64,000 bases of DNA. Origin: an uncultured Bacteroidales bacterium (lineage in GTDB: Bacteria; Bacteroidota; Bacteroidia; Bacteroidales; UBA932). The stretch covers positions 248,001 through 312,000 of the forward strand of contig ONKO01000001.1 of NCBI GenBank assembly GCA_900318445.1, in the 5' to 3' direction. Both the position numbers and the translations under genes were made by a program. Positions 52,588 through 57,933 of the stretch are shown in pieces (position 1 is the stretch's first letter; every line of letters begins with the position of its first letter). Below the pieces are notes generated by a model that saw nothing but the letters and a program-made list of their open reading frames with translations, had not been told where the DNA came from and made no database searches.

Positions 52588-54157
52588 GATCCTCATCCTC
52601 GACTTCGGCTCTCAGGTAACGCAGCTCATCGGCCGCCGGCTCCGGGAGCTGAACGTTTACTGCGAGATTTATCCGTTCAACAAGGCTCCGCTTCCCGATG
52701 AAACCGTGAAGGGAGTCATCCTCTCCGGCAGCCCATGCTCCGTGCGGGATGCCAACGCCCCGCAGGTAGACCTTACCCCCTACAAGGGGAAGCTCCCCCT
52801 GCTCGGTATCTGCTACGGTGCCCAGTACCTTTCCGCCAAGTTCGGCGGCAAGGTGGAGGCCTCCAATACGCGTGAATACGGCCGCGCCATGTTAAAGGTA
52901 GTGGCCGATTCCCCTCTTCTGAAAGGCGTAAGCAAAGAGTCTCAGGTGTGGATGTCGCACGGAGACACCATATCGGCCCTCCCGGAAGGGGCGGAGGTCA
53001 TTGCCTCCACGGCCGATGTTGAGAACGCCGCCTTCCAGTTCAAGGGCGAACAGACCTATGCCGTACAGTTCCACCCGGAGGTGTACCACACCGCCGAGGG
53101 CTCCCGGATGCTCGCGAACTTTGCCCTGGACATCTGCGGCTGCGAAGGGGACTGGACGCCGGATTCCTTCATCGAGACCACCGTTGAGGCGCTCCGGAAG
53201 CAAATCGGAGACGAGCAGGTCATCCTGGGCCTGAGCGGCGGCGTAGACTCCACCGTGGCCGGCGTGCTCCTCAATAAGGCCATCGGCAAGCAGCTCACCT
53301 GCATTTTCGTGAACAACGGCCTGCTTCGCAAGAATGAGTTCGAGGATGTGCTGGCCTCCTACCAGGACATGGGCCTGAACGTGATCGGGGCCGATGCTTC
53401 CAAGGAGTTCCTGGAGGAGCTGAAGGGCGTCACCGAGCCCGAGGCCAAGCGCAAGATTATCGGCCGTCTGTTCGTTGAGACCTTCGACAAATACGCCAAA
53501 ACCATTGACAATGCCCGCTGGCTGGCTCAGGGTACCATCTATCCGGATGTGATCGAGAGTGCCGGCATCGAGGGCATTGCTTCCAAGATCAAGAGCCACC
53601 ACAACGTGGGCGGTCTTCCCAAGGAGATGAACCTCAAGATTGTGGAGCCGCTCCGCATGCTGTTCAAGGACGAGGTCCGTCGCGTGGGCCGTGCCCTGGG
53701 CATCAAGGAAGAGCTCGTGGGCCGTCACCCGTTCCCGGGACCGTCCCTCGCCATCCGTATCATCGGAGATGTCACGGAGGAGAAGCTGGCCGTCCTGAGG
53801 GAGGCCGATGACATCTTCATCCGCGGTCTCCGCAGCTATGACTGCACCGGCATGGGATTCCCTTCCGCCGCCGATCCCCGCGTCATGGCTACCAACCTGT
53901 ACGACGCCATCTGGCAGGCAGGTGTGGTGCTGCTGCCCATCAAGAGCGTGGGCGTGATGGGAGATGAACGTACCTACGAGAACCCCGTTGCCCTCAGAGC
54001 CGTGGTTTCCACCGACGCCATGACGGCCGACTGGTTCCCGTTCCCCTACGACTTCCTCCGGAACGTTTCCAACGAGATTATCCGGAAGGTTCGCGGCGTC
54101 AACCGCGTCGTCTACGACGTCTCGTCCAAACCGCCGGCAACTATCGAGTGGGAATAA
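52580..54157 (+). CDS. guaA: GMP synthase (glutamine-hydrolysing), GTG start
   Basis: GuaA aminates XMP to GMP. The class I amidotransferase domain (~1-190) has [10 protein letters not shown] (nucleophile Cys) and QFHPEVYHT. The ATP pyrophosphatase domain has the P-loop LSGGVDST, and the dimer domain ends [12 protein letters not shown]. The GTG start gives [12 protein letters not shown], the normal beginning. The last 57 nt are repeated with two changes at 57877-57933, marking it as an insertion site. Confidence 0.96.
54101..54157 (+). other. guaA 3' end, left boundary of the island
   Basis: The 57 nt ending at the guaA stop recur at 57877-57933 in the same orientation with two differences (54112 C/T and 54119 G/A). 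Direct duplication of a gene's 3' end is the footprint left by site-specific integration, and the guaA 3' end is a known target of genomic islands in other bacteria. Confidence 0.8.
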
Positions 54158-54175
54158 TTCCGTGGCATATTAGCC

Positions 54176-54236
54176 GACTTCTCTTGGTTGTGGGTAACTT
54201 GACATTTTAGGTCAAGTTACCGTCAAAAAAGGCCTT
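54176..54236. repeat. 61-bp direct repeat, left copy, with internal palindrome
   Basis: Identical over 61 bp to 56981-57041. Its centre is an 11-bp inverted repeat GGTAACTTGAC/GTCAAGTTACC with an 8-nt loop, followed by AAAAAAGGCCTT. It could be a recombination site, a terminator or both. Flanking bases differ, so the repeat limits are sharp. Confidence 0.9.
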
Positions 54237-54240
54237 TTTT

Positions 54241-54275
54241 GCGGGTAACCGGACTAAAATTGTCACGTTACCCGC
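54241..54275. other. second GGTAAC/GTTACC hairpin
   Basis: GCGGGTAAC (54241-54249) pairs with GTTACCCGC (54267-54275) with a 17-nt loop. It echoes the palindrome of the 61-bp repeat just upstream and exists only at the left end. The remaining bases to 54357 show nothing clear. Confidence 0.5.
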
Positions 54276-54357
54276 AGAGCTATCTTTCCGGGCGCTCCGC
54301 CTCGAAATCGTCTCTCATAAGGGTGCGAAGAAAAGATAAGGCTCATCGGGTAAACAC

Positions 54358-54654
54358 TCATCGGCTCACCACGTGCCGCTCCACGACTTTGCCGTCTTCG
54401 TAGACCCAGAATGCCGTCGTGCCAGAGCCTTCGGGCGCGCGGCCGTACCATCGGCCTTCCTTCTCACGGCAGGCCTTTTTTGCGGCCTTAAGGGCGGCCT
54501 CGGCATCGGGATGAGGAATTTGTCGGCTGGTGTCTTTGGGCTTTTTTACGGGCCGACCTGGAATCCAGGAGGGGCGGGCATAACGAGGAGACCAGACATA
54601 GTCCGGAATCTCCGTTATCGGTGGGGCAACAAAAATGGGCTCATGTGGATTCAT
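54358..54654 (-). CDS. hypothetical small protein, 98 aa
   Basis: The start MNPHEPIFVAPP at 54654 lies 5 nt after a TACCTTTG box. The protein is Pro/Lys/Arg rich at the start (PSWIPGRPVKKPK), then has a helix with AEAALKAAKKACREKEGRWYG and ends EDGKVVERHVVSR. No domain is recognised. A longer in-frame extension to 55080 is antisense to the GNAT remnant and lacks protein-like composition, so I reject it. Confidence 0.6.
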   Translation of the reverse strand: MNPHEPIFVAPPITEIPDYVWSPRYARPSWIPGRPVKKPKDTSRQIPHPDAEAALKAAKKACREKEGRWYGRAPEGSGTTAFWVYEDGKVVERHVVSR

Positions 54655-54659
54655 GCGCC

Positions 54660-54667
54660 CAAAGGTA
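54660..54667 (-). promoter_or_regulatory. -7 box TACCTTTG for the small island gene
   Basis: Matches TAnnTTTG on the minus strand, with 5 nt to the ATG at 54654, like the host genes. Confidence 0.6.
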
Positions 54668-54671
54668 ATGC

Positions 54672-56576: not shown

Positions 56577-56650
56577 ACATTTATGCATCTTATTGTGCTG
56601 TAAATATAGCAAAAACATTAATTCCAGCAAAATAAAACGGTAAAATCCTT

Positions 56651-57007
56651 TTGTGTATGAAACGCAAAACTCTCAGAATCTGCTATTTGGTATTAGAATG
56701 TCTGTTGGAACCCCATATCTGGATTGACAGCCATGTGTCTTCACTTTCGCCATATACAGATTGGATTCGGGAGATTTACAATAGCGGGCACGACTGGACG
56801 GCAGCGGTGGTCGAAGGCGCTACAAAGAACGATATCCCAAGCAGGCGAAGGCCTGTGACGGTTGGGACGATTCCACTTTCCTGGACCGGAAAACTAAGAG
56901 AACTCAAAGAGAAAAATAAGAGAACTTCGAGTGTAATAAGAGAAAAAATAAGAGAAAGCCGCCCTCCAGAAGAATCATTTGACTTCTCTTGGTTGTGGGT
57001 AACTTGA
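56651..57007 (+). CDS. hypothetical fragment ending in the 61-bp repeat
   Basis: This 118-residue frame starts MCMKRKTLRI and has no recognised domain; its last codons (DFSWLWVT) are translated from the right copy of the 61-bp direct repeat, so the natural C-terminus is probably lost. It is AT-rich like the ATPase gene and diverges from it. It may be a gene relic and not an intact gene. Confidence 0.35.
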   Translation: MCMKRKTLRICYLVLECLLEPHIWIDSHVSSLSPYTDWIREIYNSGHDWTAAVVEGATKNDIPSRRRPVTVGTIPLSWTGKLRELKEKNKRTSSVIREKIRESRPPEESFDFSWLWVT

Positions 57008-57041
57008 CATTTTAGGTCAAGTTACCGTCAAAAAAGGCCTT
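56981..57041. repeat. 61-bp direct repeat, right copy
   Basis: Exact 61-bp match of 54176-54236 in the same orientation, 2.8 kb apart. Together the copies frame the small gene, the GNAT remnant, the ATPase and the hypothetical fragment. Confidence 0.9.
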
Positions 57042-57188
57042 GTTATGCTGGCGTTTTGTTCGTATCTTCGCGTCGCGAATGAAACGAGTACTTCGCAGTG
57101 TCCTTCCTCCCGGTTGACAAAAGGAAGGAGTACCAGATCCGTCAGACGCTACTTGCTAGAAAGAGCAGAATCAAATAAAATCGAATAA

Positions 57189-57575
57189 ATGAAAAGAACG
57201 CTTTACTTTTTTTTGGTCGCTTTTGCCACCTTATATGCCTCGCAAAATGTTTTTGCTCAGACGAATAAGGCCTTTAAGAAGGGATATCGTGGTTCCGTAG
57301 GGGTGAGTACCGGTGTTGCTGGTGGAACTATGCAGAAAGGTTTTTTTACGGTCGCCAATGGAGCCAACGCTAAGGATCAGCTGAAGCCGTCCGAGTTTAT
57401 TCGTCTCTCGACGGTCCACGGTTATCAGCTGGGGAATGGTGTTTTCCTTGGAATGGGCCTTGGATGGGATTTTGAACTACTGGAAGAAATGCAGTATGGT
57501 TCGGTTTTCGCCGATATAAAGTATAATCTGGTTGACGCCTCCGCGAGTCCTTTTATCGAGGGCAGAACCGGATAG
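57189..57575 (+). pseudogene. truncated outer-membrane beta-barrel gene
   Basis: A signal peptide (MKRTLYFFLVAFATLYASQNVFAQ) leads to barrel-like strands (GYRGSVGVSTGVAGG, GNGVFLGMGLGWDF) but the frame stops after SPFIEGRTG, about 128 residues in. Related barrels continue with four or more strands. The 3' part appears deleted at the junction with the carboxylesterase remnant. Confidence 0.6.
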
Positions 57576-57644
57576 TATTATTATACCACGAAGCAATTCT
57601 TCTTCTCGGTAGCGTACATCTTTTAGGTGTCGCATGGTTTTGTT

Positions 57645-57688
57645 CAATGAGCAACGCGCTAAAACGGACTTTAGCGCGTTGCTCGTTG
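57645..57688. other. long perfect palindrome
   Basis: GAGCAACGCGCTAAA (57649-57663) and its reverse complement (57670-57684) flank a 6-nt loop, and four more pairs (one G-T) extend it to 57645-57688. It lies inside the relic area between the truncated barrel and the esterase fragment and could end transcription both ways. Confidence 0.7.
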
Positions 57689-57744
57689 CATTTGTTGCAA
57701 TGAATAACACGGAAACTTGCCAAATTGCGCGTTGGACGTTGCAG

Positions 57745-57876
57745 TTGGCAGGTTTCCGGATTGTACACTTCCCACTTGAAGCGCTTGGTGTCCGGGACGC
57801 CGTTCCGGGCAAAGGAGACCCACTCGTCGCTCATGAAGTCGGCCAGTTTGTAGGCGCTCTTGTCGCAGCCCACCAT
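57745..57876 (-). pseudogene. carboxylesterase type B C-terminal remnant
   Basis: The minus strand encodes YKLADFMSDEWVSFARNG followed by FKWEVYNPETC, the typical end region of type B carboxylesterases (LADxMSDxWxxFARTGxP). The rest of the ~500-residue enzyme is absent. It directly abuts the duplicated guaA end at 57877, so the deletion or insertion joint is there. Confidence 0.7.
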
Positions 57877-57933
57877 AACCGCGTCGTTTACGACATCTCG
57901 TCCAAACCGCCGGCAACTATCGAGTGGGAATAA
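57877..57933 (+). repeat. duplicate of the guaA 3' end, right island boundary
   Basis: Encodes [18 protein letters not shown] and stop, like the end of guaA (DVSSK there). 55 of 57 bases match 54101-54157. It lies on the + strand while purF runs over it on the - strand. Confidence 0.9.

What the first reader, a model, noticed from the sequence alone, without database searches (positions are those of the whole stretch)
54101..57933. Small genomic island bracketed by a duplicated guaA 3' end
The last 57 nt of guaA are repeated in direct orientation 3.8 kb downstream with two changes. Between them lie AT-rich or broken genes. Site-specific insertion into the guaA 3' end is known from integrative elements elsewhere, but no integrase is present, so this looks like the decayed remains of one or a non-autonomous cargo element.
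Basis: partly seen in the sequence, partly recalled or inferred. Interest (0 to 1): 0.75.

Follow-up and report, generated by a model that had tools for sequence, protein, structure and literature searches.

The report
Small decayed island splitting two genes
An uncultured bacterium with rumen relatives carries a 3.7-kb patchwork of gene scraps, with one intact candidate anti-phage gene, inserted exactly where two purine-synthesis genes overlap end to end, and a repeated 57-letter stretch keeps both genes whole; it is an unusually tidy example of a known kind of insertion.

Summary
Confirmed: the last 57 nt of guaA (54101-54157) recur at 57877-57933 (55/57), bracketing a 3,719-bp insert. The empty site exists: two relatives (G150 = MAG RUG619, 2.2% different in the guaA body; G339) have guaA directly convergent on purF2, with one tail. 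New: in both, guaA and purF2 overlap by 46 nt, and the repeat contains the whole overlap, so copy A completes guaA and copy B completes purF2. The insert is a mosaic: an 89-nt palindromic repeat element, a GNAT fragment, a SLFN/AlbA_2 fragment, a shortened outer-membrane-type gene, a 126-nt esterase-like fragment, and one gene that looks intact, a PDC-S27 candidate defence ATPase. A second direct repeat (64 nt) brackets the ATPase inside the first. No integrase was found in it, and no other tail-only duplicate (258 of 400 genus genomes matched the tail pattern; six had two matches; the five besides this one are guaA genes). Best reading (about 0.55): relic of a small integrase-mobilised element at the guaA 3' end. 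Homology-facilitated illegitimate recombination and break repair remain open. Membership among guaA-3'-end integrative elements is not claimed, because the integrase is missing.

The parts
52580..54157 (+). guaA (GMP synthase), intact; its end is tail copy A
54101..54157 (+). tail copy A: last 57 nt of guaA (C at position 12, G at position 19)
54158..54171 (+). 14 nt after copy A that resemble the native purF2 3' end (11 of 13 aligned bases)
54158..57876 (.). inserted segment, 3,719 bp, absent from the guaA-purF2 junction of G150 and G339
54176..54239 (+). inner direct repeat, left copy (64 nt)
54189..54277 (.). 89-nt palindromic, MITE-like repeat element; eight further places in this genome at 90% or better, some weaker
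54364..54692 (.). stretch similar to DNA of G005 and, in part, G100; no family match
54722..55036 (+). GNAT acetyltransferase fragment (end of the domain only)
55047..55119 (.). imperfect inverted repeat (33-nt arms, 79%)
55131..56576 (-). 481-aa ATPase that looks intact, PADLOC PDC-S27 (candidate anti-phage defence); Walker A, Walker B and an ID...EMK motif present
56651..57007 (+). ORF with a fragment of a SLFN/AlbA_2 + HATPase_c_4 type gene (homologues about 550 aa)
56981..57044 (+). inner direct repeat, right copy, with a truncated 89-nt element
57189..57622 (+). outer-membrane-type small protein gene (name by my reading of the sequence), shortened relative to the G028 homologue (182 aa)
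57645..57688 (+). hairpin of 19 pairs, terminator-like; such sites are no commoner here than in shuffles
57751..57876 (-). 126-nt esterase-like fragment (name by my reading), joined exactly to copy B; homologous DNA in G339, G141 and G068 runs on beyond both ends
57877..57933 (+). tail copy B, native right junction; on the minus strand it encodes the end of purF2
57888..59294 (-). purF2 (amidophosphoribosyltransferase paralogue); its last 46 nt including stop lie inside copy B

Best explanation
Shown: in this lineage a 3.7-kb segment was inserted at the shared 3' ends of two convergent, overlapping genes, guaA and purF2. The junction became two copies of a 57-nt tail that holds the whole 46-nt overlap, so guaA ends in copy A and purF2 ends in copy B. 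Inferred: the insert is the decayed remnant of a small integrative element that recombined by a tyrosine recombinase into the guaA 3' end, bringing its own copy of the tail and restoring guaA. The integrase gene was lost or acted from elsewhere. Later insertions and deletions (the 89-nt elements and the inner 64-nt repeat) scrambled the cargo. The one insert gene that looks intact, a PDC-S27 ATPase with a PD-(D/E)XK-like motif, is probably why the segment persists, as candidate phage defence.
For: Empty site in both relatives in which guaA and purF2 were found adjacent, among the 12 highest-ranking other purF2 loci read. Joining the two flanks gives 15 (B kept) or 17 (A kept) mismatches in 457 nt to G150, with no gap. 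B shares both discriminating bases with G150; A differs from G150 at 4 of 57 tail positions against 34 of 1,518 in the guaA body (p 0.046), B at 2 of 57 (p 0.38). That fits a tail supplied by the element in copy A. The repeat ends exactly at the guaA stop, like streptococcal guaA elements, whose repeats hold only the exact 3' end, within a 12-54 bp range over the site-specific tyrosine-integrase elements there (PMC4701971, passages). IMG/VR virus records with a guaA tail not preceded by guaA exist: in L161 the copy is about 54 nt, in L162 and L170 about 100 nt (lengths judged by eye); in these three the integrase lies at the other end of the record. ATPase matches PDC-S27 over 2-479 of 480, E 1.3e-191.
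Against: No integrase found in the insert. The site does not look like a hot spot here: of 258 of 400 genomes with a tail match, six have two, and the five besides this one are guaA genes. The right end is an esterase-like fragment cut exactly at the first base of the repeat, not a recognisable att arm. A and B share two bases (33, 42) absent from G150 and G028, so copy A need not be imported; two mutations in A explain the difference as well. The guaA core reported for GIsul2 (GAGTGGGA) lies near the 3' end of the repeat, which would put B's left part, not A's tail, on the element side.
Confidence: 0.55

Rival explanations
1. Homology-facilitated illegitimate recombination: a linear piece of DNA from a related species recombined homologously inside the guaA end (bringing copy A's tail and what followed guaA in the donor) and joined illegitimately at its other end to the resident tail, leaving copy B. 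No integrase needed.
For: No integrase found. A's two differing bases equal those of G028; a C at 12 with GTC at 19-21 occurs in 3 of 49 distinct 150-nt ends (this window's A, G028 and a short-type guaA of G227; copy B is among the 49, virus loci were left out). G028 has a homologue (47%) of the insert's outer-membrane-type gene 16 nt after guaA; in the 311 loci then held, a biased and partly overlapping set, that family was found only there and in this insert. The esterase-like fragment is cut abruptly at the tail. The mechanism is described in three competent species and E. coli (PMC3240628, start of abstract in the search listing).
Against: The guaA body just upstream of A is G150-like, not G028-like. 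The two tails share bases 33 and 42, which G028 lacks. No donor with the insert's other genes next to guaA was seen in the 20 loci compared.
Confidence: 0.22
2. Break repair: a staggered break or replication slip at the guaA/purF2 end was filled with scraps of DNA, duplicating the 57-73 nt between the nicks; A then mutated twice.
For: The insert is a mosaic of fragments, with a sharp join at copy B. The similarity past the stop suggests that about 73 nt of native sequence was duplicated. A and B share bases 33 and 42.
Against: A complete 1.4-kb gene is included, and in the search of the own genome neither the esterase-like fragment nor the ATPase segment has a near-identical source (the genome is 88% complete), so filler copied from this chromosome is not seen.
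Confidence: 0.15
3. Assembly or strain-mixture artefact at the repeated 57 nt.
For: An incomplete assembly (88% complete, 32 contigs); the repeat sits at a junction.
Against: The esterase/tail junction has no shared sequence on its left side, so some real molecule must hold it; the window lies in a 403-kb contig; both flanks match G150 without a gap for 200 nt.
Confidence: 0.04

Closest known systems
GIsul2 (tyrosine-integrase island at the 3' end of guaA; PMC9376610, passages seen)
   Same: Target is the guaA 3' end; direct repeats mark the ends.
   Different: GIsul2 encodes int, alpA and genes assigned to replication and transfer, is about 15 kb, and has 19-bp att sites with core GAGTGGGA; here no integrase, 3.7 kb, 57-nt repeat.
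Tn5801-like islands and ICE_SmiB6_guaA in Firmicutes (PMC4844618, PMC4701971, passages seen)
   Same: Insertion at the guaA 3' end; in streptococci the repeats hold only the exact gene end.
   Different: These carry conjugation and integrase genes; Tn5801 repeats are 11 bp.
IMG/VR record IMGVR_UViG_2841123509_000001 (L161)
   Same: Carries a guaA tail copy of about 54 nt that begins within a codon of the one here (by eye).
   Different: 33-kb virus record with an integrase at its other end; host not determined.
PDC-S27 single-gene phage-defence candidates (PADLOC; PMC12988326 and PMC13356809, passages seen)
   Same: The intact-looking gene matches this model over its full length; PDC-S27 is described as an ATPase fused to a PD-(D/E)XK-type domain and is listed among the abundant candidates in cattle rumen genomes.
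   Different: Its defence role is a prediction; [quoted passage not shown]

Membership tests
guaA-3'-end integrative elements (tyrosine-recombinase GIs, ICEs, IMEs, prophages) | insertion at the guaA 3' end with direct repeats ending at the stop codon | tested here: met
guaA-3'-end integrative elements (tyrosine-recombinase GIs, ICEs, IMEs, prophages) | empty site with a single tail in relatives | tested here: met
   G150 and G339
guaA-3'-end integrative elements (tyrosine-recombinase GIs, ICEs, IMEs, prophages) | own integrase gene | tested here: not met
guaA-3'-end integrative elements (tyrosine-recombinase GIs, ICEs, IMEs, prophages) | crossover within a defined core (GAGTGGGA for GIsul2) | tested here: inconclusive
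   Both tails contain GAGTGGGA, but the two differing bases do not fix where strands exchanged
guaA-3'-end integrative elements (tyrosine-recombinase GIs, ICEs, IMEs, prophages) | excision as a circle | not testable with these tools
   needs DNA or reads
guaA-3'-end integrative elements (tyrosine-recombinase GIs, ICEs, IMEs, prophages) | other elements at the same site in relatives | tested here: not met
   no other tail-only copy among 258 of 400 genomes with a match to the pattern; the other 142 could not be judged
PDC-S27 (PADLOC candidate defence) | full-length match to the family model | tested here: met
   E 1.3e-191, residues 2-479, profile 3-473 of 474
PDC-S27 (PADLOC candidate defence) | protects against phage | not testable with these tools
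   needs a plaque assay

The most novel reading that the evidence does not exclude
PDC-S27 ATPases may be mobile in their own right: single genes that insert at gene ends with long (57-113 nt) target duplications and no integrase, at places where the duplication keeps the target genes whole. This window (guaA/purF2 overlap) would be one case and G129 (L306) another: there a 1.6-kb segment with only such an ATPase sits between hsdS and an intact-looking hsdR, bracketed by a 111-113 nt duplication of the hsdR 5' end.
Probability: 0.08. Interest if true: 0.75.

Novelty: new variant of a known kind. Interest (0 to 1): 0.4.

Why it matters
Insertion at a pair of overlapping gene ends should damage one partner; here the length of the duplication, 57 nt against a 46-nt overlap, avoids that and pulls the two genes apart. 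It is a compact case, with an empty sister site 2.2% away, of a candidate defence gene outliving the decay of what lies round it. It would also extend guaA-end insertions to rumen-type Bacteroidales: I saw no Bacteroidota case in the listings and passages of my searches, but the main survey of guaA islands (Song et al. 2012, seen only as a reference) was not read, so this is no claim of a first.

Tried and rejected
Tail-bearing larger elements in relatives: the five other genomes with two tail matches were read round both matches (G227); all ten matches follow guaA sequence (full, second-type, or cut by a contig end), not foreign DNA. Phage record MT837446, the best tail match in the phage collection, looks like a stretch of bacterial chromosome with guaA in two frames and no integrase match. 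IMG/VR tails: 11 loci, of which 4 (L161, L162, L166, L170) lack guaA upstream; the other seven read as guaA ends, two of them over only 33-41 residues because the record begins there.

G028 taken at first as the ancestral layout: dropped when G150 and G339 turned up and G150 proved closer in guaA (34 against 128 differences in 1,518).

Are PDC-S27 genes generally bracketed by direct repeats? 9 of 20 loci fetched (two of the 20 with the gene at a contig end) against 2 of 77 control stretches (Fisher 5e-6). The control is mostly core-gene neighbourhoods; against other genes of the same loci it shrinks to 2/17 against 2/86 at 1 kb, 3/17 against 2/78 at 1.5 kb (p 0.04), 2/15 against 4/68 at 2 kb and 4/15 against 4/48 at 3 kb (p 0.08). 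Several of the repeats are hairpins, dispersed repeats or fragments of nearby genes. Kept only as a lead. In L300 the bracketed segment also holds a tyrosine recombinase gene, whose start lies in the left repeat.

Rfam: no match in 54000-58100. Promoter and terminator scans: no more than shuffles.
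Full report
What was checked. The 57-nt repeat is real: 54101-54157, the end of guaA with its stop, and 57877-57933, 55 of 57 identical. In 159.5 kb of this contig the self-comparison found, apart from one repeat cluster, only two dispersed short-range direct repeats, and the other lies inside this one. The second pair, 64 nt (54176-54239 and 56981-57044, 63 of 64), contains part of an 89-nt palindromic element that occurs at eight further places in this genome at 90% or better, some weaker, and also in related genomes; in this genome the first dozen bases of the pair were matched only here.

Empty site. Of 400 same-genus genomes searched for purF2, the best other match is G150 (97%), then G339 (77%). 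I read the surroundings of the 12 highest-ranking other purF2 genes. In two of them, G150 and G339, guaA lies next to purF2, and there guaB-guaA runs straight into purF2 and pyrG on the other strand with a single tail. In G150 the bases after the guaA stop equal those after copy B over the first 50 or so. Joining the window's flanks gives 15 or 17 mismatches in 457 nt to G150, depending on which tail is kept, and needs no gap. So the insert is 54158-57876 plus one tail, 3,776 bp.

Two genes share the tail. In G150 and G339, as at copy B, the purF2 reading frame ends inside the guaA tail: the two open frames overlap by 46 nt in all three. The duplicated 57 nt contain that overlap. The insertion therefore leaves guaA complete at A and purF2 complete at B. 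This follows directly from the sequence; that it was selected is inference.

Which copy is native. G150 agrees with B at both differing bases (12 and 19). G000 and G150 differ at 34 of 1,518 positions in the guaA body; copy A differs from G150 at 4 of 57 and copy B at 2 of 57. This leans towards copy A's tail being the newcomer, as expected when an element restores a gene end. But A and B share bases 33 and 42 against G150 and G028, and two mutations in A would do as well. The 14 nt after copy A resemble the native purF2 end (9 of 20,000 random 18-mers score as high), so the duplicated unit may have been about 73 nt.

What is inside. From left: the 89-nt element; a stretch at 54364-54692 similar to DNA of G005 and partly G100; a GNAT fragment (Pfam Acetyltransf_3, end of domain only); a 481-aa ATPase on the minus strand that looks intact; a fragment whose homologues are about 550-aa SLFN/AlbA_2 proteins; a truncated 89-nt element; an outer-membrane-type gene shorter than its 182-aa homologue in G028; a hairpin; and a 126-nt esterase-like piece whose homologous DNA in G339, G141 and G068 runs on beyond both ends (the esterase and outer-membrane labels are my reading, no family matched). 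Pieces of the insert have relatives in 42 of 121 genomes (G000 among them; two candidates scored in each), and only G000 showed the whole. The ATPase matches PADLOC PDC-S27 end to end. Walker A, Walker B and an ID...EMK motif lie at residues 30, 115 and 401 (that these are the ATPase and PD-(D/E)XK motifs is recalled). PDC-S27 is described as an ATPase fused to a PD-(D/E)XK-type domain, most PDCs awaiting experimental proof (PMC12988326, passages), and is listed among the abundant candidates in cattle rumen genomes (PMC13356809, passages).

How it probably arose. Insertion at the exact end of guaA with a gene-end repeat is the signature of tyrosine-recombinase elements: GIsul2, Tn5801, a streptococcal ICE, ATE-1 and a Brucella island are reported there (passages only). 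In IMG/VR, four of eleven matching records carry a guaA tail that is not preceded by guaA (L161, L162, L166, L170); in the three examined further the integrase lies at the other end. Against this, the insert has no integrase that I could find; 36 stretches, of which all but two hold guaA, showed none to an HMM whose only control is its own training set; and the genus shows no second occupied site: of 400 genomes, 258 match the tail pattern, six of them twice, and the five besides G000 hold guaA genes rather than tail-only copies. I therefore give site-specific integration 0.55, homology-facilitated illegitimate recombination 0.22, break repair 0.15 and artefact 0.04. The G028 locus, with a related outer-membrane-type gene 16 nt after guaA and A's two bases, may be a relic of the same history or the kind of donor that the second model needs.

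A wider lead. Of 20 other PDC-S27 loci fetched, 9 have flanking direct repeats, against 2 of 77 control stretches. A stricter control within the same loci leaves weak or no excess (2/17 against 2/86 at 1 kb; 3/17 against 2/78 at 1.5 kb; 2/15 against 4/68 at 2 kb; 4/15 against 4/48 at 3 kb). The best parallel is L306 (G129): hsdS, a 111-nt copy of the hsdR start, the ATPase, then hsdR beginning with a 113-nt copy, 88% alike. That these 20 are PDC-S27 rests on similarity to the window's ATPase, not on a PADLOC scan of each. Too little to claim, but easily tested.

Verdict. It works like a guaA-end integrative element and is not filed as one.

Noticed in passing
L047, L048, L050, L051, L055, L057 (G008, G015, G003, G033, G020, G025): A second, shorter guaA-like gene (about 330 aa, mostly 43-46% identical, without the glutaminase part; in pieces in L057) sits directly after guaA; G004, G011, G018, G023 and G035 gave as best only a match to the second part of guaA at 53-59%.
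   Followed up: no
window 54189-54277; G000 C8, C16, C19, C23, C26, C27, C32; also G299, G150, G078, G117: An 89-nt palindromic MITE-like element repeated in this genome and in relatives.
   Followed up: partly
window 57888-59294 and G000:C19:125194-126519: Two purF paralogues in one genome, about 52% identical.
   Followed up: no
window 59296-60891: pyrG comes in two deep versions in the genus: window, G150 and G339 share one; G028 and G306 are closer to each other, with 58-59% to the window's.
   Followed up: no
window 63181-64000 and beyond, L148, L153, L041: The pepP and DUF456-type genes near glnA3 differ in order and orientation between close relatives, so the region is rearrangement-prone (both names are recalled).
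   Followed up: partly
L306:1531-3326 (G129): PDC-S27-like ATPase between hsdS and hsdR, bracketed by a 111-113 nt duplication of the hsdR 5' end.
   Followed up: partly
G000:C27, window coordinate about 78447-79159 (outside the window): Cluster of 64-154 nt direct repeats, some spaced by 83 nt.
   Followed up: no
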